Source of the DNA: a virus | Virus record (IMG/VR): IMGVR_UViG_3300031565_011202 | Location: 1 to 44,872 of that record | Direction: 5' to 3' (one strand) | Length of the DNA: 44,872 nucleotides | Shown here: positions 5,941 to 36,772 of the stretch, piece by piece | Layout of the letters: each line of letters starts with the position of its first letter | How positions within the stretch are numbered: the stretch's first letter is position 1 | Program-made: the position numbers and the translations under genes | The notes under the pieces: model-generated | Told to the model about the DNA's origin: nothing | What the model saw: only the letters and a program-made list of their open reading frames with translations | Database searches by the model: none

Positions 5941-8394
5941 TTACTGCCTCGCTAAAGCTTGACTTACAAATTTGGCGTATGATGTATTCTTCAAATACTT
6001 GTGCTGCTTCAAGATTTGATCCTCAACACTAAACCCGGCAAGTTGCTTCTCAAACACCTTATTCGCATCATGATATTTCATCCACCCACTGGTGCGTATG
6101 TGCCACAAATGAACAAGATCTATAATCCTGTTTTCATGCCAACGACTACCCTTAGATAGGCGGAAATAGAAATTGCAATCTTCGCAATTGTGGACCGCTA
6201 AACCATTAACAACATATGAATGGTCGCCAGACACCTCGAAATTATAAACCATCCCAGTATGCTGATTTGAATCAATTTTGGTGACGGTGCCGAATTTAGA
6301 CCGATTGTGTGATCTATCTGACCTAGTCACCAACTCGATATCATATGGTGGTAATAATTCGGACATGAAATCTGTATCCAATAACTCATCGCCCTCCTTG
6401 ATATTATTGGCTATTTTCCATACAAACTCTTCACCATCACGCACTAGAAATGGATGTTCTGGCGTCACTCCCTTAATTCCTAATCTCCCAGCAACAAAAA
6501 TATTCAGTATCTCTCCTTTGTAAAAACGCTTTCTCGTTGTGGCTGGACGAAATCGCCCTTCGTGTGTGTAGAGATATTCTCCATCAACCACATCTGCGAT
6601 GTCTTTATAACCATTGGCAGTAAGAACATAATTATCTTGTGCAAAACAGCCATAGCCCCAATAGTCCTCAACGAATCCACCAACTTTCCAGAAAGTATCA
6701 GTAAGACAGGCAATACTCCCTCCTTCGAAATAGGTGACAATCTTTTCGGCAGTAACGGTCTTATCTACCCGATTGTGTGTATTGATACTGTCTGTCGACG
6801 TCTTATCCGCGTAAATTACCCTAGCCCCGAGATGACAAGAGTCAGCACGATCTAAAGTATCAAAGACCAATTGTGTGTAATGAGCTGGCACCAGGGTATC
6901 GGCATCATGAAGCAGCAATTTATCATGGCTAGCACGGGAAACACCTGCATTAAAAGCCATGCTTTTGTTAAATGGTTTTCCGGGTGTAGCCACAAGCAAA
7001 TGAGTTAAGCAGCACAACTCATCTGGTTTGAAACAACTTTGATCATCTTGCTCGGCGGCAATCATCTCGATACAAGGAAATCGCTGAGCCCTGATATTAT
7101 TTATTGCAGTCATAATAGATTGGTGCCGTCCAATATCCTTGAACGGGATTATACACGATATCGACGGAACTTTCGACTTGCCAGACGCCGCAATCTTAAC
7201 AGGCCGATCACCCATAGCGGTGTATTTTGATCGAGCAATCTGTAGATGTTTTATGCGGTCCGGGACAGCCGAACGATCGGAATGGATTCTGAAATACTTG
7301 GTTGCCCCGTCAACGTCCCAGTAACCCGGTGGCTGCAGTTTAGCAGCGGCTACTCTTGTCGACCAATCAACATGCTCCATACCGTAATAACCAAAAGCCT
7401 CATTGAAATATCCAACTTTGGCAAACGCCCGATCATCCAAAGCCATCACAGCCCCATGTGGGCGAACGTCAACCCGGATGAGTAGCTTATCCCTCATTGG
7501 CTGTTTGACACCTTCAGACGCACCATAAACGCCCGGCTGGTTCAAACAGAAATGGTGCAGCCCTGTATTGTACATTGTATTAAAGTAGAAATGTTCCCAT
7601 CCTTTCGCTAAGACCTCAACATCATCATTGAGGAGCAACTTACTCGGAAAACGCTGTAAGCAACGCAATAGGCGGTTAGAATTCCCAGCGATCCCCAAGC
7701 GAGTCCTATTTCTGAGAATGACAAAGTTGTTCGTCTTCTCGAGCTTGGTAAAATAGCGATGCAACTCAACATCGGTACTACCATCGTCGCTTATGAAAAC
7801 AGTAGTCTTCTGTAAATCGGTCGTCCCAACAATAGAGTTCACCAGTCGCCGAAGCGATTTCGGACGATTAAATGATAATATTCCAACCCCGACACCATTG
7901 CTGATCGGGTAGAACATTGTGGATAATGTTTTGTGCAATGCCTCTGTGGCACCTCGCTTGAATCCCCTGCCAACTATCTGAGCTTGGAGGCGCTGCCTAG
8001 CCCGACTTTCATTAATTTGCCTAGCCCGACTTTTGTTGATCCGATGCAAAGTATGTTTAGTTTTCGACGAGACGATACGGTTAGAAGCTGGCTGCTTTTC
8101 AGCGTTTTTGGCTTGAGTTAATGCAGAGGCAGCACCCTGCTCGGCCATAACCAGTGACCTCTTCTTAGCAATTCCAAGTGCCTGGCTGCGTGAAGGATGG
8201 TATTTCTTCGGCTGAACAGTTTCCGTCACGGTTGGCCGTTGAGACGTGCGCAGATGCTTCAGAAACCCTCGTTTGACATAACGGTCAAAGAATGATGGAA
8301 GACATATGCTTTTCCCGCGACGTATGATAACCTTCTTACCATCAGGACCAACAAGATGTAGATCATAGTCGTGGGAATTTACATAGTCGGGCAC
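5941..8394 (-). CDS. Two-domain GT2 glycosyltransferase interrupted by a mini-intein
   Basis: The 817-codon precursor has a basic N-terminal region (1-160) and a first GT2 domain (about 164-395: GVGILSFNRPKS, FISDDGSTD, and LLNDDVEV as the DXD-like site). The second GT2/GT7C-type domain spans 409-817 (CIIPFKDIGRHQS, LLLHDADT, GGFVEDYWGYG, then CEDCNFYFRL and HLWH). An intein of 154 residues (583-736) splits the conserved W-G-Y-G/E-D motif. Removing it leaves WGYG-CEDCNF, the expected motif, and a protein of about 663 residues. The GTG start at 8394 has GGAG seven bases upstream, and the gene overlaps the P-loop kinase by 16 bases. Donor and acceptor are unknown; Gal or HexNAc transfer is suggested only by the GT7C-like motif. 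Confidence 0.9.
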   Translation of the reverse strand: MPDYVNSHDYDLHLVGPDGKKVIIRRGKSICLPSFFDRYVKRGFLKHLRTSQRPTVTETVQPKKYHPSRSQALGIAKKRSLVMAEQGAASALTQAKNAEKQPASNRIVSSKTKHTLHRINKSRARQINESRARQRLQAQIVGRGFKRGATEALHKTLSTMFYPISNGVGVGILSFNRPKSLRRLVNSIVGTTDLQKTTVFISDDGSTDVELHRYFTKLEKTNNFVILRNRTRLGIAGNSNRLLRCLQRFPSKLLLNDDVEVLAKGWEHFYFNTMYNTGLHHFCLNQPGVYGASEGVKQPMRDKLLIRVDVRPHGAVMALDDRAFAKVGYFNEAFGYYGMEHVDWSTRVAAAKLQPPGYWDVDGATKYFRIHSDRSAVPDRIKHLQIARSKYTAMGDRPVKIAASGKSKVPSISCIIPFKDIGRHQSIMTAINNIRAQRFPCIEMIAAEQDDQSCFKPDELCCLTHLLVATPGKPFNKSMAFNAGVSRASHDKLLLHDADTLVPAHYTQLVFDTLDRADSCHLGARVIYADKTSTDSINTHNRVDKTVTAEKIVTYFEGGSIACLTDTFWKVGGFVEDYWGYGCFAQDNYVLTANGYKDIADVVDGEYLYTHEGRFRPATTRKRFYKGEILNIFVAGRLGIKGVTPEHPFLVRDGEEFVWKIANNIKEGDELLDTDFMSELLPPYDIELVTRSDRSHNRSKFGTVTKIDSNQHTGMVYNFEVSGDHSYVVNGLAVHNCEDCNFYFRLSKGSRWHENRIIDLVHLWHIRTSGWMKYHDANKVFEKQLAGFSVEDQILKQHKYLKNTSYAKFVSQALARQ
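6187..6648 (-). other. Mini-intein inside the GT2 glycosyltransferase
   Basis: A self-splicing protein element of 154 residues. It begins at Cys583 (block A: CFAQDNYVLTANGYKDI). It has block B with the usual Thr-x-x-His (GVTPEHPFLV) and a hydrophobic block F (MVYNFEVSGDHSYVVNG), and it ends with VHN followed by Cys737 as the first extein residue. Cys1, the terminal His-Asn and Cys+1 are all present, so class 1 splicing is expected. The middle is too short for a LAGLIDADG or HNH homing endonuclease, so the element cannot home by itself. Confidence 0.95.
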
Positions 8395-15063: not shown

Positions 15064-16206
15064 TTACGGATATACGCGGAGCCCCTTCCAACCCTTCCAT
15101 GAGTTGCCAATGCTAACCCTCACAGGAAATATTGGATTATTGTCAAGGACACCCTCAAACGGATAACACATGATCTCCGCAATCCGCTTCACGGTAGCCT
15201 TAACAATAGCGCTACTGCGTGGGCAAGTCACCACTATAGAATCATGAATCTCAGCCACCAAATCAAGACCAAACTCCTCCCAAACCCGACGCACAACAAG
15301 CTGCATGGCGTGAGCAATCGTTCCCTGCATAGTCGCGTTGAAAACACTCAAAGTCTTACGGCCATCCTCCATCACATACTTTCTACCAAGAATACTATAA
15401 AGAGGCTCACCAACAGACAGCTTCTCCTTACACTCCAATACCCACTGCCTCAGACTAGGAAAAGCATCAAAAATATAAGCGCTAGTATCCATAGCATTGA
15501 TAGACATCAACAATGCCAGCTTACACTCATCGCGGCTCAAGTAATCAGTCCCAGGCACATCTCTGTGCCCCTTATTTAAGAAATCGGCCACGTACTGATA
15601 TGGGTCAGAATGTTCGCATGCTTCTAATAATCTCTCATCCCCACTCAACAAAGCAGCCACTCTAATATCAGCAGCTCTCCAATCAAAATGTAGAAAATAA
15701 TCATCGTGCTTTCCAACGGGATTTCTGACCTGTACATCATTAGAAGCACCCTGGATATTATATATCAAGGTCTTGGTGCGCCCACTGTAGGTGCGCTGAG
15801 ACCACCGAGGATAAACAGGGCTATCAAAAACCATCAATCCTCGATCCTCAATAGCAGCATAAACTACAGCAGCATCGGCAGTTGCCCTCTGCCACTGCTT
15901 GAGCTTAATCGACGCCATGGCGGGCAACAATTTCAATAATCTACCCTCCGCCGTATCAAGCGAGGTGGGGATTTGTAGCTCGGGCAATAGGAGATCATAA
16001 ACATTCAGCCGTTCGGTATAGAATGGAATATCAAAGGCTTCAATAAATAATTTGAAGTCTGAGGTAATTATCCTTCCACCCTCGGTCATCTGCTTAATGA
16101 TAAATCTCTTGATCTTCTTCTTGTTTTGTTCGATATCATATATCTTAATATGTGTACTAGGCATATATAATGGAATAACTTGTTTCTTGCCATTATCGCA
16201 ATTCAA
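15064..16206 (-). CDS. Divergent family-A DNA polymerase
   Basis: The C-terminal 250 residues follow the PolA palm and fingers: a GRTKTLIYNIQ segment, motif A around FDWRAADIRVAALLSGD (catalytic Asp), motif B starting RDECKLALLMSIN, the FNATMQGTIAHAM helix and motif C EIHDSIVV. Motif B keeps Arg and Lys but lacks the usual Phe and Tyr-Gly, and motif C has HDS where most have HDE, so catalysis or fidelity may be unusual. The first 130 residues look like a 3'-5' exonuclease fold without its carboxylates. The first usable standard codon is TTG 16206 or ATG 16164, but coding-like sequence continues in frame to 16282 and an AUU at 16266 has GGAG before it. Confidence 0.85.
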   Translation of the reverse strand: MNCDNGKKQVIPLYMPSTHIKIYDIEQNKKKIKRFIIKQMTEGGRIITSDFKLFIEAFDIPFYTERLNVYDLLLPELQIPTSLDTAEGRLLKLLPAMASIKLKQWQRATADAAVVYAAIEDRGLMVFDSPVYPRWSQRTYSGRTKTLIYNIQGASNDVQVRNPVGKHDDYFLHFDWRAADIRVAALLSGDERLLEACEHSDPYQYVADFLNKGHRDVPGTDYLSRDECKLALLMSINAMDTSAYIFDAFPSLRQWVLECKEKLSVGEPLYSILGRKYVMEDGRKTLSVFNATMQGTIAHAMQLVVRRVWEEFGLDLVAEIHDSIVVTCPRSSAIVKATVKRIAEIMCYPFEGVLDNNPIFPVRVSIGNSWKGWKGLRVYP

Positions 16207-25598: not shown

Positions 25599-26249
25599 TC
25601 AATCGTCAGCTCTTGTCTTCCCTGCGAGGCTCAAATCCATCTGGCCATCATGGTAGCCTCTGTGCCACTCCGCGGATTCATTCGTTTGATGGTGCATACC
25701 ATGTGTCGCCGCATGATATCCTCGCTGGTATTCAGCCCGTTCCACCTCGGCCTTCACTGGACCGCAATAATCAAGCTCTGAACAACTCAAGAAATTTATC
25801 AAACGAGTATTATAAATATTCGCTATGCGTATGCCCCTTTCTATTGGAAATCCATCCCGACGCTGAAGAGACTTCGCCACCTCTAACGGATTCCTGAAGA
25901 TACTGATAAAATGCGGATTCTCCAGATGCGGCAGATAAAGTCGAATAGTCAATGTCGTGCGTGGATCCTTCCAACCCCATAGCTCTCTAGCTCCTCTGTC
26001 AGACTCAATAGTCTCTATAATTCGCTCACGGAAATGGTCATACTGGTTTAGAATAGCCTGTTCTGGCGGTGGATCATGCCAACTACCCCCAGCACGCCTA
26101 AGTATGGCCCGATTTAGGACTCCGAATGGTCTACTCTCAAAAACATTCCCACCAGGGGTGGGACCCATATAGATCTCATTTAACAGAGCCTTAGATACTA
26201 AACTGGTAGCACTCCTATGCATACCCAAAACCACAAACACTTTGCTCAT
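25599..26249 (-). CDS. Sulfotransferase (PAPS-dependent)
   Basis: A 216-residue sulfotransferase. The N-terminal FVVLGMHRSATSLVSKAL is the 5'-phosphosulfate loop, and FISIFRNPLEVAKSLQRR is the 3'-phosphate-binding segment with the usual Arg and Ser. WGWKDPRTTL is also typical of this family. It moves sulfate from PAPS to a hydroxyl or amino group, often on a sugar, so it may decorate the phage glycan; the acceptor is not visible. Its ATG overlaps the DnaE stop by four bases (ATGA). Confidence 0.88.
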   Translation of the reverse strand: MSKVFVVLGMHRSATSLVSKALLNEIYMGPTPGGNVFESRPFGVLNRAILRRAGGSWHDPPPEQAILNQYDHFRERIIETIESDRGARELWGWKDPRTTLTIRLYLPHLENPHFISIFRNPLEVAKSLQRRDGFPIERGIRIANIYNTRLINFLSCSELDYCGPVKAEVERAEYQRGYHAATHGMHHQTNESAEWHRGYHDGQMDLSLAGKTRADD

Positions 26250-29200
26250 GCAGTATCCCCATCTGGCAGCTCACCCTCTTGATACTCGTTCCATCCACGC
26301 TTACTCCAAAGTGATTTAATAGTAGACCCACGCGCCAAAGCAAAGCCATTCCGATCCCGGTCATACTCAACCTTCAACCGAATCCCAATATCTTTCTCAA
26401 AAAGCCCTTGATCCTGTGTCCCAATATCACCCTCCCAAATAAGAACAAGAGCATTCTGCACCCCATCATTCACAATTAGACGAATGAAAGGCCGGTTCTT
26501 AGCCTTGGTCCTGGCCATCTGTTTCTCAACAACGACCGCCTCCATGTTCCCAGTCAGCTTCGCATGCTCAACAGTGGCCCCACCATCCGTATGATAGAGA
26601 TCAATCGGCGAATGCCAATAATAGCCCAAGAACTCTTCCTCAAATCTTAGAATCTCCCTGAGATCATAATCTTCCGAATAAAAGGACATGATTCTTTCCC
26701 GACTCTCGTCCGCGGTCGGCGAAAAAGCAGACACCTTCTTCGGAATCTTCTTCCTATTAGGAAAATTGTCCTTGAACTCCCGCAACAATCGATCCCGCTC
26801 GGCTAAAACACACTCCTCAGTCCACCCATCCATCTCTAGGCTTCTATCACGATGGTACTGCTTTAACTGAGCAACAGTAATCGGACTATAGACCTTCTCC
26901 TCTATTTTTCGGCCCCTAACTGTACGGCTCACAATCTTGAATTTTTCAGGATCAGAAACTAACCCATGATACTCCACAAACGATGAATCCTTCCACATCG
27001 TTTCCCAAGGAACCTTAACCTCCCCAGTACAGTACTTATGCACATACCACATCCAGGTAGCTTTAACGTTCGGATGCAAATGCTGAAATGAACCCAGCTT
27101 AATCAATCGTTCAAAGAGAACCTTATGTTTACCCTTCTCTTCGATAAATGTATCAATGTCGGAAAAATCGCGCGGATCATCGCCGATCCCATCGGCAAAT
27201 TGCGACGCTAACTTGTCGCCAACCTTCTTCAAACTAATAAGCCCAAGGGCTACGGCCGGTCCCCCCTCCTTAGCCATCTGCCCGGCATGGGCCGTCATAT
27301 TCACTGTCATATGATTAATATCAATCTCACCGAATCTAACTCCTTCGGCTCTCGAGGCCGACATATATCGCGGTAATTTCTTCTGATTGCACCGACTCAT
27401 CACGCAAGCCCACCACTCCTCTGGAAAATAAGCCTTAAGCCAAAGACATTTATATGCCCATAGGCAGTAACTAATCGCGTGGGACAAGTTAAATGCATAA
27501 CGACCAAACGACACCATCCGTTCGTCAAACCACTCAGTCGCCAAACCCTCTCCGAGGTGTTTCTTTGCCCCGTCGATCCACTTTTGCCGCACTGGCTTAA
27601 GTTTATCCTTCCACTTCTTGGCGACAGCCTTACGGGCATCCTGAGCCTCGGGACCGGTAAAACCAGCGATACGTTGCCACATAGCAGTAAGTTCTTCTTG
27701 GTAGCACAATATACCCAATGTGCTCTCGAGTATCTCGACCACCATTGGATGTTCATTGGTTCGCCAAGATTGAGTATTATCATCCCGACGTCTAACATAC
27801 TCAGGTATCATGGCCATCGGTCCGGGATGGCCAAGTCCAAGGAAGATCAATAAATCCTTAAAACTGCGAACCCCATTCATCAAAGTTTGCTGGGCCAATA
27901 CCGTGTCGAACTGGAAAATCGCATCAGTCTTTGATTCATTCGCCAACCCAAGAGCCTTCGGATCATTCAATGTGATCTTAACTTCTTTGCCATCAGCATC
28001 CCAATAAACACCAGCCTGATCTATCTCAGGATCAATATACCGTAGCAGACCATCCATTGCTGACCCACCATCGGGCGGGCGAAAGGTAATGCCATGATTC
28101 CGCTCTACCATCTTACAACATGTATAAATATATTCAAGATTTTTCAGACCAAGGATGTCCCATTTATTATAGCCAAACTTCGAGAGTTGAGTATTGCGAC
28201 CCTCAGTCCAAAGACTAACCCACTGATTAGTCTTCTGATCAAGCTGCATTGGAACATTGCCAAACAGATCCCTATCGGCAATAATAATAGCACCAGCATG
28301 TTTACCCGCATGCTTGATGCGCCCCACCAACCGCACAGCCATATCTATAACATGCGGTTTGTCACGAATAAAATCCATGAAAGAAGACTTAGTACCCCTT
28401 GGCACCAAAGAACCATACTCAGCTAGAATACTGCCAAGCGTAGGCGTCTCAGTATCACCCGATCCACAAACCGGGCACTTAAGTTGTAACCATTTCTCTG
28501 AAGGTACTCCCTCATCCTGCATGCTACAAATAGAAACCCCATTCAGCCCATTATATGTATACCCACAGTCTCGTTCCTCACCAGTTTCGGCATCCCGTAC
28601 CTTCCCACGGCAAACACCAAAACCACCATCCAGCATTTCATTGATATCATCGGGTAACTCCCTAGTCAGTGCAACCGCTGGACTCCTAGCAACATCGAGA
28701 GACTCAGGCCCTCTACGTGCTGTCTGGTCATTCTCCCCGCCATCATCCTCGCTGTCTCGCCCATAGTAGGCAAAATATGCATCGCCGAGTGCCTGCTTCA
28801 ATAGATAAGTCTGCCAGGTACCAACACTAGCAACATTATTGATACCATACCGCTCAGCCGCATACTCTTTGATCTTATCACGAGCCTCTGGAAGACAATC
28901 GATATCGATATCTGGTTTGTCATTGTCCTGAATCACATCAAAGGGTAGATGACCACACTGTTCGATCAGCTCGGTGATATAGGAATGCCGCGTGCTTAGT
29001 ACTAGAGGATCACTACGACAAGCAATAGGATCACAATCAGCATCGCCAGTAAGACGCTTGAGCAACCATGGCAATAAGAGCCCGTGCTTGTTTTGATCGA
29101 ATTTTTTGCGTTCATTGACAATGTCTTCCCAGTAGCGATTGGCACCTTGCTTGTCGACTTCCTCTAACTCAAATTCCAATCGCTTAAGATAGATGCCATT

Positions 29201-29275
29201 CAGCCCCTTATTCTCTAGGGCTTGTAGAGCCATCTTCTTAATTGTGTCCCATTTAATCTCTTTGGTCTTAGCCAT
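26246..29275 (-). CDS. dnaE: DNA polymerase III alpha, catalytic half (split DnaE)
   Basis: A 1009-residue C-family polymerase piece. It carries the palm with DKPDIDID (two catalytic aspartates), the third Asp in KWDILGLKNLEYI, the HAGAIIIA segment, FQFDT, CYQEELTAMWQRIAGF and the fingers motif FNLSHAISYCLWAYKCLWLKA. The C-terminal part includes an OB-like segment (FIRLIVNDGVQNALVLIWE). A cysteine insertion lies near residue 250. It lacks the PHP domain and the GPRG/SAGGSLV loop, which are encoded at 32518-34416. Its first 85 residues look like a degraded copy of the junction region. The ATG overlaps the RNase H-like stop as TAATG. Confidence 0.93.
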   Translation of the reverse strand: MAKTKEIKWDTIKKMALQALENKGLNGIYLKRLEFELEEVDKQGANRYWEDIVNERKKFDQNKHGLLLPWLLKRLTGDADCDPIACRSDPLVLSTRHSYITELIEQCGHLPFDVIQDNDKPDIDIDCLPEARDKIKEYAAERYGINNVASVGTWQTYLLKQALGDAYFAYYGRDSEDDGGENDQTARRGPESLDVARSPAVALTRELPDDINEMLDGGFGVCRGKVRDAETGEERDCGYTYNGLNGVSICSMQDEGVPSEKWLQLKCPVCGSGDTETPTLGSILAEYGSLVPRGTKSSFMDFIRDKPHVIDMAVRLVGRIKHAGKHAGAIIIADRDLFGNVPMQLDQKTNQWVSLWTEGRNTQLSKFGYNKWDILGLKNLEYIYTCCKMVERNHGITFRPPDGGSAMDGLLRYIDPEIDQAGVYWDADGKEVKITLNDPKALGLANESKTDAIFQFDTVLAQQTLMNGVRSFKDLLIFLGLGHPGPMAMIPEYVRRRDDNTQSWRTNEHPMVVEILESTLGILCYQEELTAMWQRIAGFTGPEAQDARKAVAKKWKDKLKPVRQKWIDGAKKHLGEGLATEWFDERMVSFGRYAFNLSHAISYCLWAYKCLWLKAYFPEEWWACVMSRCNQKKLPRYMSASRAEGVRFGEIDINHMTVNMTAHAGQMAKEGGPAVALGLISLKKVGDKLASQFADGIGDDPRDFSDIDTFIEEKGKHKVLFERLIKLGSFQHLHPNVKATWMWYVHKYCTGEVKVPWETMWKDSSFVEYHGLVSDPEKFKIVSRTVRGRKIEEKVYSPITVAQLKQYHRDRSLEMDGWTEECVLAERDRLLREFKDNFPNRKKIPKKVSAFSPTADESRERIMSFYSEDYDLREILRFEEEFLGYYWHSPIDLYHTDGGATVEHAKLTGNMEAVVVEKQMARTKAKNRPFIRLIVNDGVQNALVLIWEGDIGTQDQGLFEKDIGIRLKVEYDRDRNGFALARGSTIKSLWSKRGWNEYQEGELPDGDTA

Positions 29276-29742
29276 TATGCCGCCATAGTACCAGTATCCG
29301 AACCCGATTGAGACTCCGCACATTCCTCGGCCTCGTTGAAACCAGGAATATCCTCAGCCGCAGACAACGCAAATTGTAGCTTATTATAGAAAGTGGTCCA
29401 CTTCCTGACCTTGCTTACGATGTCGCGGTCATATACTTGAGACTCCAAATAATCTGTGTCAGACTTATCCAGAATAGCTTTAACATGCCCAGGACAGACA
29501 AGCACAACATTTGCAGTACGCCGCATCGGCCGAACGACCGCAGCCAGCGCTAGATGCGCAGCCTGCAAATGGGCACGATTGACCGACGCATTGCCAATAG
29601 GATGACTAATCACACGCCTAGATTTTCTACCGTGCTCATCCTCAAATTCTAAAGTAATACAGCATCCAGCCTTCTGTACCAGCTTACCCTCACTGATAGA
29701 AGCACCAACACCATACAAAGTGATGCTAGGATCTAAGGACAT
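29275..29742 (-). CDS. RNase H-fold protein lacking catalytic residues
   Basis: From ATG 29742 (MSLDPSITLYGVGAS) the 155-residue protein follows the RNase HI layout: the first strand with GxGAS, a segment HPIGNASVNRAHLQAAHLAL matching the NNRMELMAA helix, and NVVLVCPGHVKAIL matching the TDSQYV strand. The three key acids are replaced (Asp to Val, Glu to His, Asp to Pro), so it should not cut RNA. It is translationally coupled to the DnaE catalytic half (TAATG) and overlaps the upstream gene by 17 bases, suggesting a structural role near the polymerase. The fold assignment is by pattern only. Confidence 0.6.
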   Translation of the reverse strand: MSLDPSITLYGVGASISEGKLVQKAGCCITLEFEDEHGRKSRRVISHPIGNASVNRAHLQAAHLALAAVVRPMRRTANVVLVCPGHVKAILDKSDTDYLESQVYDRDIVSKVRKWTTFYNKLQFALSAAEDIPGFNEAEECAESQSGSDTGTMAA

Positions 29743-30190
29743 CGACGAGCTCTCCCAGTTTTTGTAGCATGGCTGCATGGCCCGTTTTGGTGGCCATGCT
29801 AAGATCGGTTAAAGTAGACTTCAAGAACTCCACATGCGGCAATAGCTCGGTTCTCGACTCTATACTCTTTTGTGTTATCTGCCAGACAGGAGATAGTGGA
29901 TTATCAAGCCCCTCCATTCTCTCAATCACAGACAGATAAATAGTCTTGGTAAGTAATACAGAAATAGCATTCAACCTTGTCGACGCCTCGGCAAGGTTAT
30001 CATCACACATGTCTGATAAAACATCTATCAAAGAAAGAGTGATACCACCAATATGATCAATAAATCCATTGGTAGCCATCAAATAAATCTTGATAACCTC
30101 TTGTAAGTGCTTGATTTTACGTTTGACCGTTTCCACATTGACCCTTTCTAAATCTAAGAGTTTTTGCCACTCACGCTTGATCGTTTCCAT
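29726..30190 (-). CDS. Hypothetical helical protein (154 aa)
   Basis: Fully helical-looking protein of unknown function. The start METIKREWQKLLDLERVNVETVKRK contains the product of a duplicated 54-base segment, so it has two possible initiation sites: ATG 30190 with AAAGGGG upstream, and a GTG at about 30136 with AAAGGG upstream. It overlaps the RNase H-like gene by 17 bases. Confidence 0.65.
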   Translation of the reverse strand: METIKREWQKLLDLERVNVETVKRKIKHLQEVIKIYLMATNGFIDHIGGITLSLIDVLSDMCDDNLAEASTRLNAISVLLTKTIYLSVIERMEGLDNPLSPVWQITQKSIESRTELLPHVEFLKSTLTDLSMATKTGHAAMLQKLGELVDVLRS

Positions 30191-30235
30191 ACTGACCCCT
30201 TTCTAGATCTAAGAGTTTTTGCCACTCACGATCGT
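30128..30235 (-). repeat. Tandem 54-base duplication of a translation start region
   Basis: Two adjacent copies, 30128-30181 and 30182-30235, each contain the ribosome binding site, a start codon and the following codons (GAAAGGG..., start, GAAACGGTCAAACG in one and GAAACGATCAAGCG in the other). They share the long stretch CTAAGAGTTTTTGCCACTCACG on the plus strand, with a few substitutions elsewhere. Confidence 0.85.
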
Positions 30236-30528
30236 CAATCGATATCCCAATTCTTCGATTTACACTGGGGACATCGCCAATCCTTTTTCACCTTCTGCCA
30301 TTCCCCATCGGTTGGTACAACCATTGTCGTTATCCTGGCGATGATACGCCTCAACTCCATCACTACAAACTCTGCGCCGGTTATAGTTTCTCGCCCCAAT
30401 CTGATTTCATCCTTGAATAGATCACGGCGCAGTTCAGCTATAGAACTTTCACAGAGCGGATTGTACTCATCAAGACTCCAGAAATCATCCTGGGACCAAT
30501 CACAATCATGGCAATGAAGGTACGCCAT
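30235..30528 (-). CDS. Zinc-ribbon protein (97 aa)
   Basis: Small protein from ATG 30528 (MAYLHCHDCDWSQDD). It has one cysteine pair at the N-terminus (CHDC) and another at the C-terminus (CPQCKSKNWD), with a helical charged segment in between (AELRRDLFKDEIRLG). The two pairs could form one zinc site in the folded protein. GAGAGG lies about eight bases before the start. It lies between the homing-endonuclease-like gene and the duplicated start region. Confidence 0.7.
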   Translation of the reverse strand: MAYLHCHDCDWSQDDFWSLDEYNPLCESSIAELRRDLFKDEIRLGRETITGAEFVVMELRRIIARITTMVVPTDGEWQKVKKDWRCPQCKSKNWDID

Positions 30529-30595
30529 CAACTCAACCTCTCTATAAGTACCAAGGAACTACGAAACCTTTACCGCGAAGTATGAATATGGCCAC

Positions 30596-32485
30596 CTATT
30601 TAATAAGTACAAACTTCTTTTTGGGTAGTCCCCACACTTTTAAATAATTAAATACCATTGCATATTCACTTTCCAACATAGACATCTTAGATGCCCGATT
30701 CCACAATGTCTTCTTGTGCATTATCCACCCATCATTACTAACATACCAGTAGTCCTTATTGGTATCTCCAACATATGCCCAGCCACTCGCCAAATATATC
30801 ATACCAGTATGATTAAAATTGGGATCCGCAAATGTGAATAATGAACCAAAATGTGTCAATGCATCTTTGCAAGCCCTCGATAACAACCAAGATCCCAGAT
30901 TTTTAATGTGATAATTTGGATGAATAATAAACCGAGTTAATTCTCCGCCAGGAACATTTCTAGTTGGAGATGAAATAACACAGGCAGCTATTAAAGTATG
31001 ACCTATTCTAACACCATAAATATGCCCACCTCTGCCAATACTGCCTTTATAGTGGTAATTATCAAGCAATATTTTGGCATCTGCAAATGGCACAATACTG
31101 TCAAATTCAACGTCAGATAATGTATAATAGACCGATGGAGTGGGTACAAAATGAATATTGATAAATTGATATATTTTTTCTAACTGGTAAAATTCATGCT
31201 CCCAAACATATAAACGAGTAAAATTGGGGTGCTTCTCCTCTGTGTATTTTGCCTTTTTTTGGTCCCGTATTATTGTATCTGGCAATGTGTGCCAATAATC
31301 GCCTTGAATATCTACAAGTTTATCCCCTATCTTAAAATCCCATCTATATGGTCCAGCATGAAATTGTGTATCATAACTTATATCAAGATCATTTAACATA
31401 CATGCAAATTGACGTTCTAAAGATGATGGGACACCAGCCATCAACTTCATTTTTCTTATATAATCTGGATTCTCCCATAATTTCTGCGTCCTAATACTGG
31501 CGGCTTGCCTGCGTTCATCTGTCCAAGAGTCTCTAACGGCTTGCCTGCGTTCATCTGTCCAAGAGTCTCTAGCGGCTTGCCTGCGTTCATCTGTCCAAGA
31601 GTCTCTAAAAGCCGCAACCATCATCTGACGATATTCCACGTCGCCCCACTTTATTATCATCTCTGCGGACACTTCAGCACGTAGTTCATCATCCCACCAT
31701 GTTTTGCATATATCAGACATCCATTTACATTTCTCGACCGTCCAATGGCTTTCTATCTTCTGTCGATATTTTGGGTCCGCCCAGTTGTGGCTTGACCTAT
31801 GCGACCATACTGCCATATCATCACTAGACAAACCATCTAAAAAATTAAGAAAACCACAAGTCCAGTTGGCACGATATTGAGTATCTTTCCACCGTATCCG
31901 AGCTTGCTCGGCGCTCCTCGCCAAAATAGCATCATTATTATAAAAAGATTTCAAGCCAGAGATAACTTTATTTCTATATTCACTATCCTGCCATAGCGCA
32001 GCGGACTGTTGAGACATGCTCTGTCTGTAAGAGTCATCTTGCCATAATTTCTTAAGCTTCTTAGAACACGCTTTGATAGCAGAAGGACGTGCGGATTTTA
32101 ATGATTCCCTGGCTTTATCTGGATCGAAACCGTTTTTAAATTTGGCTATATACTCGGGATCTTTCCATAATTCAATAGCTCTCTTTTGGGCAGACTCTTT
32201 CAATTCTTTGGTATGTCTGCGTTGCTTCTGTTTTTGTGCATATTTTGGGTTTTCCCATTTCTTTTTGATGGCCAAAGAGGTGGCCTTGGATCTGGATTCT
32301 GATTTATTGCTACAAGGAACACACCTATAAAAACCATCTTTGCGAGAAACTCTATAGTGATAGTGTTTTGTGGCAAACTTCTGTTTGCCACAAACATCAC
32401 AAGCAATAACAACTTTTTGGGTATTCGGAAATCTATCAGATTCACGTAATCCAAATACTTCAAATGTAGCTTCCCAATCGATCAT
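30596..32485 (-). CDS. Homing-endonuclease-like protein: Trp-Asp repeats, Vsr-like nuclease, Mom-like acetyltransferase
   Basis: A 629-residue multidomain protein. Residues 29-58 form a four-cysteine zinc motif (CDVC, CVPC). Residues about 70-345 contain roughly a dozen short repeats of the form W-x-D/N-x-x-Y/R (KKWENPKY, ELWKDPEY, KLWQDDSY, DSWTDERR), probably a DNA-reading array. Residues 354-435 look like a Vsr/EDxHD nuclease: SSLERQFACML, WDFKIGDKLVDIQGDYWH and LYVWEHEF. Residues about 455-600 resemble the Mom-like GNAT fold (YHYKGSIGRGGHIYGV, GELTRFIIHP, FADPNFNHTGMIY). It lies 32 bases after the DnaE N-terminal half, as free-standing homing genes often do beside split genes. Nuclease specificity is unknown. 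Confidence 0.75.
   Translation of the reverse strand: MIDWEATFEVFGLRESDRFPNTQKVVIACDVCGKQKFATKHYHYRVSRKDGFYRCVPCSNKSESRSKATSLAIKKKWENPKYAQKQKQRRHTKELKESAQKRAIELWKDPEYIAKFKNGFDPDKARESLKSARPSAIKACSKKLKKLWQDDSYRQSMSQQSAALWQDSEYRNKVISGLKSFYNNDAILARSAEQARIRWKDTQYRANWTCGFLNFLDGLSSDDMAVWSHRSSHNWADPKYRQKIESHWTVEKCKWMSDICKTWWDDELRAEVSAEMIIKWGDVEYRQMMVAAFRDSWTDERRQAARDSWTDERRQAVRDSWTDERRQAASIRTQKLWENPDYIRKMKLMAGVPSSLERQFACMLNDLDISYDTQFHAGPYRWDFKIGDKLVDIQGDYWHTLPDTIIRDQKKAKYTEEKHPNFTRLYVWEHEFYQLEKIYQFINIHFVPTPSVYYTLSDVEFDSIVPFADAKILLDNYHYKGSIGRGGHIYGVRIGHTLIAACVISSPTRNVPGGELTRFIIHPNYHIKNLGSWLLSRACKDALTHFGSLFTFADPNFNHTGMIYLASGWAYVGDTNKDYWYVSNDGWIMHKKTLWNRASKMSMLESEYAMVFNYLKVWGLPKKKFVLIK
31501..31608 (-). 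repeat. Three tandem copies of a 36-base unit
   Basis: Units at 31501-31536, 31537-31572 and 31573-31608 differ only in the last base. They encode RDSWTDERRQAA repeats in the DNA-reading region of the homing-endonuclease-like protein. Near identity at DNA level shows recent expansion. Confidence 0.95.
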
Positions 32486-32517
32486 ATAATATTTTTGCTC
32501 GAATACACGACTTGGAC

Positions 32518-34416
32518 CTAAAGTTTGATATTGAGCATATAGCCTCCGCGTGAGGAGGCCATAAATCGGTCAAAACTTAACCCCCATTTTAGGGGGTTGA
32601 TCGCGTGTATGTCAAGTAGAAAACATACCAATGACCCACCCGCCGAATTAGAGCTAAAAGTTCCGTTCAGCCTATATGTATTTGTAATGCTAACCTGCAA
32701 ATCGTATACCTTGCCAACATAATACCTTCTTGATATCTTTTTGATTCCTAATCTCTGTACGGAACCTGCTAAAACCAACTTCTGTAATTCGCTGACATTT
32801 TGGATCTGCGAAGACAACAAGACACCTTTATTGTTCTGGACATCGGTATCTATCCGGTCCGGCAGATTGCCAATGATCTCGTCGGTATCTATAATCTCGG
32901 ATGCTGGAAGAGGCACAACCAAATCGTTTCTGATAATATATAGTTTATGATCCCCGGTTATCTCTATGGTACAATCGTCCAACTCGAAAATATATAGTTC
33001 CTCCGATACATCATAGGCGAATTTGTTTTCAACAATTTGATCATTTCCAAATCCGTCTTTAATCTCATCGCCTATCTGTACATCCTTAATCATTTTCGGC
33101 CCAGAATCGCAAACATCGATCAACGCCTCGGGGATTGTGCACCCCCGAGGTCCAAAAGGCCAACCTTGTCTATGACCATACTGCAATAAATCCTGCGTAA
33201 TTAAAAAATAACTGGCAAAACCCTTGTCGATAAACCGATCTAATTCAATCTTGGTCTGCTCAACATAACTAACTTCACGACCATCAATAATATACTTCTT
33301 ATCATTCTTGTGTAGACCACGCCGGACTAACGCCGCTGCAACAATCTTGCGCAACTTCTTGTCGGCATCAACTCCTGGCTCAACCTGGGTCCATTCAGGA
33401 ATTTTCGGATTCGTATCTAGTTCAAGCGGCTCGCATCGTTCCGCAATCAATAAGGTATTATCACACATCTCCTCAAACTGGCTATCGCTGACAGCCTTCG
33501 AATACTTGTTGTTCTTGAATGTCGCCCAGAGCTCTGCCCTACTCTTCATAAACTGCTCATCACTGTTCACATGGAACAACTCGGGATCGTCCACAGTTCT
33601 ACCCTGCGAGACAGCCATCATAACCTTCTGAACCTCGAAATCCTTTCTGGTCATATAATGAGCGTCATTCGTCAGCACCACCTTAATCCCATATCTATCG
33701 CCATACTCAGTGAGCATGCGAAATACAGCATAATCATATAACTCTGGTAAACACGGCATCTGCACTTCTAGGAAGAAATCCTCACCAAATTCTTCCTGAA
33801 ACATCTTGATATATTGCACTGCTGTGTGATCGCGCCCCTCAAGCCGTGGTGCTCTCTTCCCAGTCTCCTGCAAATACTGAGCATCAAGCCTAAGTTCATA
33901 TGCAACCGGACCATTAATACATCCAGATAAAATAATTAATCCCTCTTTATATTCGCGCAGTTTATCAAACCAAATTCGCGGAGCATAATAAAACCCAAAC
34001 TCATGGGCAAGAGTAGTCAACTTAATTAGATTATGAAGTCCAGTCTCGTTCTTACACAGTATAGTCATATGTCTGTTCCGGCGAAATCTCTGACTCAAAA
34101 GATCGTCATCTTCGCCTAGCTGTTTGAGCTTGCCACCATCTTGCACAAACTGTCTACGTATAGGTTCATAGTTGTTGAAATAGATCTCACAGGCTGCGAT
34201 GTATTTCACTCCATGCTTTCGGGACGCGAAATACATATCGGGAACAGAAGCCATGTGTCCATGCTCAGTAATCGCTATGGCGGGATACCCGCGCTTCCCA
34301 CACTCCTCGGCATACTGATGGGGGGAAACGCACCCATCCAAAGTACTAAAAATCGTATGAGAATGGCAGTGGACAAACTCTGAAGGCCCTGTATAATCTT
34401 CTGGTTTTGCCGTCAT
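32518..34416 (-). CDS. dnaE: DNA polymerase III alpha, PHP half, with mini-intein (split DnaE)
   Basis: A 632-codon precursor encoding the N-terminal half of DnaE. The PHP domain keeps its metal ligands (VHCHSHTIFSTLDG, AITEHGHM, CEIYF, TNDAHYMT), so it may still be an exonuclease or a structural metal centre. The ELDRFIDKGFASYFLITQDLL segment and GPRG/SAGGSLV loop follow, with the intein (426-590) between G and S. After RFMASSRGGYMLNIKL the frame stops, just where DnaE would continue to the catalytic PDIDID, which lies in the gene at 26246-29275. Without the intein the product has 467 residues. The ATG overlaps the upstream stop by four bases (ATGA). Confidence 0.92.
   Translation of the reverse strand: MTAKPEDYTGPSEFVHCHSHTIFSTLDGCVSPHQYAEECGKRGYPAIAITEHGHMASVPDMYFASRKHGVKYIAACEIYFNNYEPIRRQFVQDGGKLKQLGEDDDLLSQRFRRNRHMTILCKNETGLHNLIKLTTLAHEFGFYYAPRIWFDKLREYKEGLIILSGCINGPVAYELRLDAQYLQETGKRAPRLEGRDHTAVQYIKMFQEEFGEDFFLEVQMPCLPELYDYAVFRMLTEYGDRYGIKVVLTNDAHYMTRKDFEVQKVMMAVSQGRTVDDPELFHVNSDEQFMKSRAELWATFKNNKYSKAVSDSQFEEMCDNTLLIAERCEPLELDTNPKIPEWTQVEPGVDADKKLRKIVAAALVRRGLHKNDKKYIIDGREVSYVEQTKIELDRFIDKGFASYFLITQDLLQYGHRQGWPFGPRGCTIPEALIDVCDSGPKMIKDVQIGDEIKDGFGNDQIVENKFAYDVSEELYIFELDDCTIEITGDHKLYIIRNDLVVPLPASEIIDTDEIIGNLPDRIDTDVQNNKGVLLSSQIQNVSELQKLVLAGSVQRLGIKKISRRYYVGKVYDLQVSITNTYRLNGTFSSNSAGGSLVCFLLDIHAINPLKWGLSFDRFMASSRGGYMLNIKL
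32647..33141 (-). other. Mini-intein inside the DnaE N-terminal half
   Basis: A 165-residue intein. It starts at Cys426 (CTIPEALIDVCDSG, MIKDVQIGDEI), has block B TGDHKLYI, a VYDLQVSITNTYRLNG block F, and ends SSN before Ser591. The residue before the terminal Asn is Ser instead of the usual His, while Cys1, the Thr-x-x-His and Ser+1 are present. It is too short to carry its own homing endonuclease. Removal restores GPRG-SAGGSLV, the conserved DnaE loop. Confidence 0.93.
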
Positions 34417-35078
34417 TGAATCTCTCGCAATGGATGTTGCCCCTGGATATTCAGGATCGTTTCCATATAGACTTTATCTTTAGTAAACGACAATGCCACT
34501 AGACGTTTAATACTGCGCAATATTATATCATCTACTAATGGAGCCCACACCATATTGACAACAGCCTCTTCGATTGGCTCTTCTAAATACCGAGCCCAAC
34601 TCTCAGCAAGATCAAACCAACCATTCTTCTGACACACTCGCATAAACCTTTTGACCCGATCTTGAGACACCTGGATATGAGAGGCACGGCTAACTCTATG
34701 TCTGATTTCATCTAACGACATGCACTCGATATCACAGACCGCAGCATACCTACCAGCCAGACCATCCTTGAACAACATGGTTTGAACATGCTTGAATACC
34801 ATTTCTGCGCAATTCTCTAAATCAGTCTGATCATAGGAGGATTCCCGACCAACAATAAAGGCATTGGCCAAATCGTGTAATAATTCTAGATTGTACCTAG
34901 CCCGAGTCTTCAAACCAAGCCATTCATTGATATTGTTGGTCTTCTGTTTTAGTCCACCAATCTCAGTGATAGTATATGGTGTGCGAGGGGTATCCTCATT
35001 ATGTTCTAGGATAAAAGTCGCATTGCCCAAAGAAAAGACAATTAGGTCTGGCGGAACCGCGTATCTGATGGTTATCAT
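34413..35078 (-). CDS. Hypothetical protein (221 aa)
   Basis: Unrecognised protein, mainly helical in its second half (EIRHRVSRASHIQVSQDRVKRFMRV, where a winged-helix-like unit is possible). It is translationally coupled to the DnaE N-terminal half by an ATGA overlap. There is no clear ribosome binding site before ATG 35078. It is the first gene after the actin-operon terminator, so a promoter is expected in 35079-35112, but none can be pointed to. Confidence 0.7.
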   Translation of the reverse strand: MITIRYAVPPDLIVFSLGNATFILEHNEDTPRTPYTITEIGGLKQKTNNINEWLGLKTRARYNLELLHDLANAFIVGRESSYDQTDLENCAEMVFKHVQTMLFKDGLAGRYAAVCDIECMSLDEIRHRVSRASHIQVSQDRVKRFMRVCQKNGWFDLAESWARYLEEPIEEAVVNMVWAPLVDDIILRSIKRLVALSFTKDKVYMETILNIQGQHPLREIQ

Positions 35079-35142: not shown

Positions 35143-36213
35143 TTAAAAGCACGTCGCTGCCAATAAGCACCCTTCGGCAACTGCAAAAATTGGATTATCG
35201 CATCTCTTGACACTGGCAATCTCAAATGGTAGTTCTTCTTCATCAAACAACAATTGCACTAACTCTTTGAATCCATTTGGACAGGCTGTCCCACCCGCCA
35301 TATATACGTTAATGGGCTTGTCAATTCTCGCCTTGTTCTCATTCTCCACAAATCCCTGAACTATTCCATGAACCACATTCTGGATAAGGATTTTGTAATG
35401 GAGACTAATATCAATATCTAACCGGCTCACCGGTTCTACCGCCAAGTCAATCCGCTCCTTCGCCCTACAAACCGTCGTCGGCGTTTCTTTAGAGCGCAAC
35501 CTAGACTGCTCAGGATCGTACCCGTGCCGACGAGCCACTTCCGTATCTATCCAATCACCAGCACCAACCCAACAAAACGAATAGATTTCCTGACCCCAAA
35601 GCACATAACTCACAGTGACAGTACCAGCACCCCACGAAATACCAATACCAGTACCGTCGGGGCTATCCTTCAGCACAATAGCATGGGATTCCCCGATCGA
35701 ATCCGTAAGCAATTCTGCATCAGAATCATAACCATCAATGATAAGGTTGATAACCTGCTTGTGATAATCAATATTAGAGTCCCTGTTAATAGCCCGCGCA
35801 GTCGTACAATAGCAGATCTTAACCTGATTGGTAAACTTCCCAATCTCGTTCTCGGCCATGTCTAGAAGCCCTTGGACAATGGCCGCCAGAACCATCATGG
35901 CATCCTCTTCCTGGGCAATCCCACCGTGCGCCATTGGCCGTAGAAGAGTGTCATTATGGGCATAGGCGAGTTCCTCAGCGTCTTTGCCTAGAACATAAAT
36001 ACTGTCGTTGCCCTCAAATTTGATCCAGCGAGCTGCCCGCTTACTACCATCGGATCTGATTTTGTTTTTATCGTCGAGCATGTTTTCGACGAACTTGGAG
36101 GGGTTGGGATAGACGTAGAAGCCGTTGACTTCTTGAAGGAATGCGACACCCTTGTCTGTCTTATAGGCCATGACGACATTTTTGGTGCCAATATCGATTC
36201 CTAAAGCGCTCAT
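35143..36213 (-). CDS. Actin/Hsp70-like ATPase
   Basis: From ATG 36213 (MSALGIDIGTKNVVMAY) a 356-residue protein with the nucleotide-binding signatures of the actin/Hsp70/sugar-kinase superfamily: the phosphate-1 loop GIDIGTKN, phosphate-2 region GIGISWGAGTVTVSYV and adenosine motif NVYMAGGTACPNGF. GGGAG precedes the ATG. It may polymerise to place or segregate phage DNA, as ParM-like proteins do, or act as a chaperone; the sequence does not decide. The same frame stays open for 159 codons upstream, overlapping the membrane-protein gene in another frame. It is the last gene of the operon. Confidence 0.85.
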   Translation of the reverse strand: MSALGIDIGTKNVVMAYKTDKGVAFLQEVNGFYVYPNPSKFVENMLDDKNKIRSDGSKRAARWIKFEGNDSIYVLGKDAEELAYAHNDTLLRPMAHGGIAQEEDAMMVLAAIVQGLLDMAENEIGKFTNQVKICYCTTARAINRDSNIDYHKQVINLIIDGYDSDAELLTDSIGESHAIVLKDSPDGTGIGISWGAGTVTVSYVLWGQEIYSFCWVGAGDWIDTEVARRHGYDPEQSRLRSKETPTTVCRAKERIDLAVEPVSRLDIDISLHYKILIQNVVHGIVQGFVENENKARIDKPINVYMAGGTACPNGFKELVQLLFDEEELPFEIASVKRCDNPIFAVAEGCLLAATCF

Positions 36214-36334
36214 ATTAATTCTTCTCCCTGCATATGCGACCCCCAGGCCGTGGACTTCTAGACCGTCTTGTTCTATCTCCTCTTGGTATAATACACACTT
36301 CTGTGGTGGAGAAGTGGTATTACTTTGCGGTTTC

Positions 36335-36772
36335 TTAGGGGACTTTTGGGGGGGTTTTTTCTTCCTGGCCAGTGCTGCCTTCGGTGGAGGGATTATCTCC
36401 GTCTTGCTCTTCTCGACTGGTTTGATCGTCTGACGGAAGTTGTGGAGCATTCGCTTGCGAACCGAAGCCACCTTTAATGCGTGGCGGATTTTTGAGCCCC
36501 GGTGCAATAGCCGTTGGCGGAGTTTCAGGTACTGAGCGAAATCGACCGGAAACGGACTGCTCGCGGGGGAAAGCAGGTCCCGTAATTCTTGATCTGTCTC
36601 TGGTTGACGTTCCGGAGGTACCTTCCGAGGTCGGTCCTTCCAGCCCGCCTCGTCTGGTAGACTCATACACTTGTACTCTCGCCCTGACATCCACCACCAG
36701 GACTATAGCACCGGCCGCCAGTACTATAGCAATGATTGAAAATATCAAAGCCAAAACGGGTAGACTTACCAT
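36335..36772 (-). CDS. Membrane-anchored protein with disordered tail
   Basis: From ATG 36772 (MVSLPVLALIFSIIAIVLAAG) a 145-residue protein: one N-terminal membrane segment, then a polar, Ser-, Gly-, Pro- and Glu-rich tail that is surely disordered (ending EEKTPPKVP). The ATG overlaps the glycosyltransferase stop as TGATG, so expression is coupled. The end has an A6-C7-A4 run (36344-36360 region) where a +1 slip would lead into the frame of the actin-like ATPase. Function unknown; it might be the membrane partner of the ATPase. Confidence 0.75.
   Translation of the reverse strand: MVSLPVLALIFSIIAIVLAAGAIVLVVDVRARVQVYESTRRGGLEGPTSEGTSGTSTRDRSRITGPAFPREQSVSGRFRSVPETPPTAIAPGLKNPPRIKGGFGSQANAPQLPSDDQTSREEQDGDNPSTEGSTGQEEKTPPKVP

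What the first reader, a model, noticed from the sequence alone, without database searches (positions are those of the whole stretch)
26246..34416. DnaE polymerase split into PHP and catalytic halves with other genes between
The gene at 32518-34416 ends with RFMASSRGGYMLNIKL, just before the place where DnaE would read PDIDID; that motif is in the separate gene at 26246-29275. The 3.2 kb in between holds a homing-endonuclease-like gene and three small genes. The catalytic half begins with about 85 residues that look like a decayed copy of the junction region (an ELEEVDKQG segment resembling ELDRFIDKG, then DCDPI). This suggests duplication or insertion followed by division. It echoes T4-like phages where homing genes split nrdA or gene 43.
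Basis: partly seen in the sequence, partly recalled or inferred. Interest (0 to 1): 0.8.

Follow-up and report, generated by a model that had tools for sequence, protein, structure and literature searches.

The report
Phage DNA polymerase made in halves
A group of large phages encodes its DnaE-type DNA-copying enzyme as two separate proteins cut through the middle of the active site, so the halves most likely have to assemble to copy DNA; the cut is an old, inherited trait, and the homing gene now sitting at it arrived later.

Summary
DnaE is encoded as a PHP half (32518-34416) and a catalytic half (26246-29275). The cut falls in the palm, between the GS motif that holds the dNTP triphosphate and the metal-binding PDIDID motif.

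About 17 lineages of related IMG/VR contigs carry the same cut, with no intact close relative. Most lack the homing endonuclease gene. In one 157-kb contig the halves lie 56 kb apart on opposite strands. So the split is old, does not depend on the endonuclease, and cannot be repaired by cis-splicing. The junction shows no intein and no Rfam intron.

PHP ligands, GS residues and catalytic aspartates are invariant, and the two halves co-evolve (r=0.95). It lacks GPGRGS and is under strong purifying selection. This points to duplication with complementary loss, giving an obligate two-chain polymerase with a shared active site. Assembly and activity are inferred, not shown.

Precedent: a PHP-less minimal split Pol III in group 2.2 jumbo phages (PMC7824862). 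This one keeps PHP, fingers and OB domains, and its relatives lack PolB.

The parts
32518..34416 (-). N-half of DnaE (632 aa before splicing, 467 aa after)
   Evidence: PHP PF02811 1.3e-35; phmmer to M. tuberculosis DnaE1 chain positions 2-410
33436..34383 (-). PHP domain; nine metal-ligand positions H16 H18 D27 H52 E77 H116 C166 D251 H253 all conserved
   Evidence: ligand set compared with PMC3919608
33142..33435 (-). start of palm up to ...WPFGPRG
32647..33141 (-). contiguous mini-intein, 165 aa (C1 ... GDHKLY ... VYDLQVSITNTYRLNGTFSSN | S)
   Evidence: Pfam Intein_splicing 1e-5; aligned with contiguous L003 and split L033/L039 inteins; dN/dS about 0.10, near dS saturation
32521..32646 (-). 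SAGGS dNTP-binding (GS) motif and FDRF helix; last DnaE residues before the cut
   Evidence: R424 G425 S426 A427 G429 S430 R452 R458, intein-free numbering, invariant
30596..32485 (-). stand-alone homing-endonuclease-like gene: zinc-finger-like N-terminus, DUF559/Vsr-like nuclease motif, Mom/GNAT-like C-terminus
   Evidence: between the halves only in the window and L003
30235..30531 (-). small gene with CxxC motifs, between the halves
29726..30190 (-). small gene between the halves; similar-sized genes at this place in relatives
29275..29778 (-). small gene between the halves, found in about half of the relatives; its stop overlaps the C-half start (TAATG)
26246..29275 (-). C-half of DnaE (1009 aa): palm catalytic strands, thumb, fingers, HhH, OB
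28916..29275 (-). N-terminal extension of the C-half: second, altered copy of the palm start without GPGRGS
   Evidence: profile homology; purifying selection; modelled with high confidence
28898..28915 (-). PDIDID catalytic aspartates D122, D124, D126
28157..28159 (-). third catalytic Asp, D373 (KWDILGL)

Best explanation
This is a C-family replicative DNA polymerase that has become an obligate two-chain enzyme. The N-chain carries an apparently intact PHP nuclease, the palm's triphosphate-binding GS motif and the conserved FDRF and SRGG arginines. Its mini-intein must first splice itself out to restore GPRG-SAGGS. The C-chain carries the three metal-binding aspartates, thumb, fingers, HhH and OB domains. 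The two fold together without a covalent link into one palm with a shared active site. The most likely origin is duplication of dnaE in an ancestor, followed by complementary loss: one copy kept PHP to GS, the other kept an altered palm start plus everything from PDIDID on and lost its own GPGRGS. Shown here: the split, its age and generality, the conserved residues, co-evolution of the halves, profile homology of the duplicated palm start, and selection on it. Inferred: physical assembly, polymerase activity, intein splicing, and the duplication as the mechanism of origin.
For: Same cut in about 17 lineages. Halves 56 kb apart on opposite strands in one contig. PHP ligands, GS residues and all catalytic Asp invariant in 12 taxa. 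Mirror-tree r=0.95, 0 of 5000 permutations. Duplicated palm start: hhalign prob 94.9, E 4e-8 against intact DnaE and 61.9, 7.6e-5 against N-halves, with shuffled controls. Most relatives' N-half tails keep a truncated start of the catalytic motif (MPD/MPE/MPS), so both halves contain this segment. dN/dS of the extension 0.06-0.11 where dS is measurable. The only C-family polymerase found in 7 of 9 related contigs, and no PolB in any. In the C-half model alone the strands around the active site have the lowest confidence (337-377 below 50), as expected if the partner is missing.
Against: No experiment; no complex could be modelled. AlphaFold gave low confidence for the palm and intein of the N-half, so complementarity of the interface is untested. 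Both chains contain a version of the palm start, and how the two copies are accommodated is unknown. Low model confidence can also come from the shallow alignment. A family-A polymerase in the same phage could carry part of replication. dS is near or beyond saturation in several comparisons.
Confidence: 0.72

Rival explanations
1. The halves are joined after or during expression: by a split intein at the palm junction, or by intron splicing across 29275-32518, restoring one polypeptide.
For: The gene family is full of inteins and split inteins at other sites. Bacillus phage G is interrupted at almost the same spot, P|DIDID, with a GIY-YIG gene in the gap. Cyanobacterial DnaE trans-splices (own knowledge).
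Against: The N-half ends within about 5-16 residues of its last DnaE-like residue. The C-half has no intein block F/G and no Asn followed by Ser/Thr/Cys before PDIDID. No Rfam intron in the window or relatives. Halves are 56 kb apart on opposite strands in one contig. The C-half's 115-aa extension is protein-coding and constrained.
Confidence: 0.08
2. The halves work apart: the C-half is the polymerase, using its altered palm start, and the N-half is a stand-alone PHP proofreading nuclease or a regulator.
For: PHP nuclease sites are complete. The C-half extension is modelled with high confidence. In one contig the genes are far apart. A PHP-less C-family enzyme can be a single chain with its own GS motif, for example L013.
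Against: The C-half lacks GPGRGS and the FDRF and SRGG arginines, which contact the incoming dNTP in known C-family structures (own knowledge). The N-half keeps exactly these, invariant; a free PHP nuclease would have no use for them.
Confidence: 0.13
3. The split was caused by insertion of a homing endonuclease (as with T4-like split nrdA or gene 43), without duplication; the C-half extension is a later addition.
For: An endonuclease gene sits at the break in the window and L003. Mobile endonuclease cassettes do invade this gene: L033/L032 form an occupied/empty pair with a 1,382-bp cassette and 98.6-99.3% identical flanks.
Against: About 15 lineages have the split without that gene. Window and L003 are sisters (100/99 support), so the endonuclease looks like a single late arrival. 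The extension matches the palm start of DnaE.
Confidence: 0.12
4. Degenerate pieces of a dead polymerase; the family-A polymerase at 15064-16206 replicates the genome.
For: A family-A polymerase-like gene is present in the window and 8 of 9 relatives.
Against: All DnaE catalytic, GS and PHP residues are invariant and the halves co-evolve. The family-A protein is a short core whose helix-O motif departs from consensus, and it is not detected in contig G001.
Confidence: 0.04

Closest known systems
Minimal split DNA polymerase III alpha of group 2.2 jumbo phages (Iyer et al. 2021, PMC7824862)
   Same: C-family polymerase in two separately encoded proteins, cut between the NTP-binding and the Mg2+/template-binding parts; genes can lie far apart.
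   Different: That version is minimal (no PHP or other domains) and accompanies a family-B replicase. Here PHP, fingers, HhH and OB domains are kept, no family-B polymerase was found in 9 contigs, both halves keep a version of the palm start, and inteins are present.
Bacterial DnaE1 (M. tuberculosis 7pu7/5lew, Taq 2hpi, E. coli 2hnh)
   Same: Domain order, PHP ligands, GS motif, PDIDID, third Asp, fingers.
   Different: One chain there, two here; the copy of the palm start in the C-half has no counterpart.
Cyanobacterial split DnaE with trans-splicing intein
   Same: dnaE encoded in two separate genes.
   Different: There the break carries an intein that rejoins the chains. Here the break has no intein, and the one intein is contiguous and lies elsewhere.
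'Fractured genes' with split inteins and inserted endonucleases (Dassa et al. 2009; own knowledge, paper not held)
   Same: Relatives of this dnaE carry exactly that arrangement at GPRG|SAGGS, FGRYAFN|S and GHPGPM sites.
   Different: The permanent palm break is not of that type.
Bacillus phage G gp329/gp331/gp339 and Corynebacterium phage P1201 gp59/gp58
   Same: Phage dnaE in pieces; phage G also has a mini-intein at GPGRG|SAAGS and an endonuclease gene after the N-piece.
   Different: Phage G breaks at P|DIDID with no overlap and a further break before the third Asp. P1201 breaks after the third Asp with overlapping ORFs.

Membership tests
C-family DNA polymerase (DnaE) | PHP domain with metal ligands | tested here: met
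   PF02811 1.3e-35; nine ligand positions invariant
C-family DNA polymerase (DnaE) | GS motif plus three catalytic Asp | tested here: met
   GS in the N-half, D122/D124/D126/D373 in the C-half, invariant
C-family DNA polymerase (DnaE) | fingers domain | tested here: met
   PF17657 8e-29
C-family DNA polymerase (DnaE) | single polypeptide | tested here: not met
   two genes in every relative where both halves were found
C-family DNA polymerase (DnaE) | DNA synthesis activity | not testable with these tools
   needs biochemistry
Minimal split Pol III (PMC7824862) | split between NTP-binding and Mg2+-binding parts | tested here: met
Minimal split Pol III (PMC7824862) | no PHP or other Pol III domains | tested here: not met
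   PHP, fingers, HhH present
Minimal split Pol III (PMC7824862) | accompanied by a family-B polymerase | tested here: not met
   PF00136 absent from 9 of 9 related contigs
Trans-splicing split-intein DnaE | intein halves flanking the break | tested here: not met
   no HINT match and no Asn+Ser/Thr/Cys at the palm break
Intein (GPRG|SAGGS, in the N-half) | HINT blocks A, B, F, G with Cys1, block-B His, terminal Asn, +1 Ser | tested here: met
   alignment; PF14890 1e-5, below its curated cut-off; penultimate residue is Ser, not His
Intein (GPRG|SAGGS, in the N-half) | splicing | not testable with these tools
   needs expression assay
T4-like gene split by homing endonuclease | endonuclease at the break across the lineages that share the split | tested here: not met
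   present only in window and L003
Intron-interrupted gene | recognisable group I/II intron at the break | tested here: not met
   no Rfam match

The most novel reading that the evidence does not exclude
A full-size PHP-DnaE replicase that is an obligate heterodimer whose single active site is assembled from two chains: triphosphate-binding residues on one, catalytic metals on the other. It arose by duplication with complementary loss inside one domain, and it acts as the main replicase of a clade of phages with a T4-type capsid that lost or never had a family-B polymerase.
Probability: 0.55. Interest if true: 0.75.

Novelty: new variant of a known kind. Interest (0 to 1): 0.62.

Why it matters
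Replicative polymerases are normally single chains in which the GS and catalytic Asp motifs lie about 45 residues apart in one fold. A natural cut between them, with an overlapping second copy of the palm start, is a clean case for studying how one active site can be divided between two genes, and for separating dNTP binding from metal catalysis and from PHP proofreading. It also shows that a split usually blamed on homing elements can be far older than the element found at the break.

Tried and rejected
Cis-spliced intron across the gap: no Rfam match in the window or relatives, even at permissive threshold for 29000-34500, and halves on opposite strands in one contig. Split intein at the palm break: no motif. 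Assembly artefact or frameshift: recurs in independent assemblies. Endonuclease as cause: absent in most relatives. First test of the 'decayed copy' with 4 sequences per side was weak (hhalign P 0.011); it became significant with about 16 C-half and 12 intact sequences. One shuffled control scored 132 and proved to be a 5-column artefact. N-half structure model: palm and intein below useful confidence, so no interface argument was built on it. Foldseek of the C-half gives DnaE, but global TM-scores are low and alignment coordinates are not reported, so it does not prove the fold of the extension. The single-sequence N-half query found no relatives in IMG/VR and needed an alignment query. No cellular relatives of the C-half were found in genome contigs. 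The tree of C-halves has open forks, so the order of intein gains is not resolved.

Full report
WHAT IS THERE. The window is a 44.9-kb IMG/VR virus fragment. On the minus strand the DnaE N-half (34416-32518) is followed by an endonuclease-like gene (32485-30596), three small genes and the DnaE C-half (29275-26246). The N-half matches bacterial DnaE from its first residues to the helix after the GS motif (M. tuberculosis DnaE1 chain positions 2-410). The C-half matches from PDIDID on (Taq residue 461 onward). The cut therefore lies between the palm element that holds the dNTP triphosphate and the strand that carries the catalytic metals.

Residues 426-590 of the N-half are a mini-intein between GPRG and SAGGS. 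It has Cys at position 1, a GDHKLY block B, a VYDLQVSITNTYRLNG block F/G, a terminal Asn and a Ser at +1 (Pfam Intein_splicing 1e-5, below its curated cut-off; alignment). In relatives L033 and L039 the same intein is itself split, with a different endonuclease-like gene between its halves. L032 and L033 differ by exactly such a 1,382-bp cassette, with 98.6-99.3% identical flanks, so the site is an active target. The contiguous L003 intein keeps the sequence MKQL where the split C-intein of L039 begins with its start codon. This suggests re-fusion of a split form, though the direction is not proven.

AGE OF THE SPLIT. Alignment-based scans found about 17 distinct lineages on contigs up to 408 kb, all with the same division and none with an intact close relative. 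The distance between the halves is usually 1.0-3.2 kb. In 3300045738_002037 it is 56 kb, on opposite strands. The window-type endonuclease lies between the halves only in the window and L003, which are sisters (100/99). Inteins, by contrast, are scattered over six sites in the two halves (PHP near residues 76 and 250, GS, GHPGPM, YGHVC|YQE, FGRYAFN|S), some contiguous and some split with endonucleases, so that the polymerase is encoded in up to four ORFs. The permanent palm break is thus older than, and different from, the mobile elements.

THE OVERLAP. The C-half begins with about 115 residues present in every relative with a complete C-half start. Profiles of this segment, with PDIDID left out, match the palm start of intact DnaE (prob 94.9, E 4e-8) and, more weakly, the N-halves (61.9, 7.6e-5). 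Of 300 column-shuffled controls, 299 score below 23 against 49 for the real pair; the exception is a 5-column artefact. The copy lacks GPGRGS. It is not junk: dN/dS is 0.06-0.11 in the pairs where dS could be estimated above 1, and 0.02 in a very close pair with only one amino-acid change, and AlphaFold models it with pLDDT mostly above 80. Conversely, most relatives' N-half tails keep the start of the catalytic motif (MPDPIS, MPDPVN, MPEPIN and so on). Both genes therefore contain a stretch that occurs once in an intact enzyme. This is expected from duplication and complementary loss, not from simple breakage.

FUNCTION. In 12 taxa the nine PHP metal positions, the GS motif, R452 and R458 of the N-half (intein-free numbering) and D122/D124/D126/D373 of the C-half are invariant. 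The distance matrices of the halves correlate at r=0.95, and none of 5000 permutations reaches this; part of that correlation is shared phage ancestry, so it shows vertical co-inheritance rather than contact. Seven of nine related contigs have no other C-family polymerase; G001 and G008 carry an extra one of about 560-590 aa. None has a family-B polymerase, 8 of 9 have a T4-type gp23 capsid gene, and 8 of 9 have a short family-A polymerase-like gene. The best reading is that the two chains assemble non-covalently into the phage replicase, with dNTP-triphosphate contacts from one chain and metal catalysis from the other. Assembly and activity were not tested.

KNOWN OR NEW. Iyer and colleagues described a minimal split Pol III alpha in group 2.2 jumbo phages, divided into NTP-binding and Mg2+-binding proteins, without PHP and beside a family-B replicase (PMC7824862). 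The present enzyme shares the position of the cut but fails two of that type's stated features: it keeps PHP and the other domains, and no family-B polymerase accompanies it. Bacillus phage G (break at P|DIDID, with an endonuclease gene) and P1201 (break after the third Asp) show that phage dnaE is broken repeatedly and at different points. I found no description of this clade in the held papers; most subscription journals were not searched. Hence: new variant of a known kind.

Noticed in passing
window 5941-8394 (-): Glycosyltransferase carrying a canonical-looking mini-intein (GYG|CFAQDNYVLT...VHN|CED); Pfam Intein_splicing 1.6e-7. An unusual host protein for an intein.
   Followed up: partly
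window 15064-16206 (-): Short family-A DNA polymerase-like protein (380 aa, PF00476 3e-10) without exonuclease domain; the helix-O region departs from consensus. Present as a 370-450 aa frame in 8 of 9 related contigs.
   Followed up: partly
L033:7807-9040 and L032: Natural occupied/empty pair for a split-intein plus endonuclease cassette (1,382 bp) at the dnaE GS site; the few mismatches near the site cluster just downstream of it.
   Followed up: yes
L039 (contig 3300014208_000001): Polymerase in four ORFs: split intein at GPRG|SAGGS, permanent palm break, and a second split intein at GHPGPM in the fingers with several other genes between its halves.
   Followed up: partly
L003:1028-11958: Three endonuclease-like genes around one dnaE: antisense upstream of the N-half, after the N-half, and inside a split intein at FGRYAFN|S; the first and third are closely related.
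   Followed up: partly
L013:55-1806 (contig 3300010885_055964, 878-2626): Additional PHP-less 583-aa DnaE-like polymerase with its own GS and PDIDID motifs; 38.6% identical over 98% to a gene in a 484-kb uncultured phage record, LR756508.
   Followed up: partly
window 28451-28624 (-): Insertion in the C-half with four invariant cysteines (C222, C237, C267, C270), probably a zinc ribbon; it lies in a stretch not aligned to bacterial DnaE.
   Followed up: no
window 26246-29275 (-), residue H483: The RPGP motif of the DnaE fingers reads GHPGPM here, invariant in the clade: an arginine of bacterial DnaE replaced by histidine.
   Followed up: no
window 35143-36690 (-): Volactin (actin-like, PF25216 5e-45) gene upstream of the DnaE N-half; it neighbours the N-half in most relatives.
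   Followed up: no
window 2992-4143 (+): IS605 OrfB/TnpB-like gene with Cas12f1-like TNB domain.
   Followed up: no
window 25599-26249 (-): Sulfotransferase-like domain followed by a stretch resembling ribosome modulation factor.
   Followed up: no
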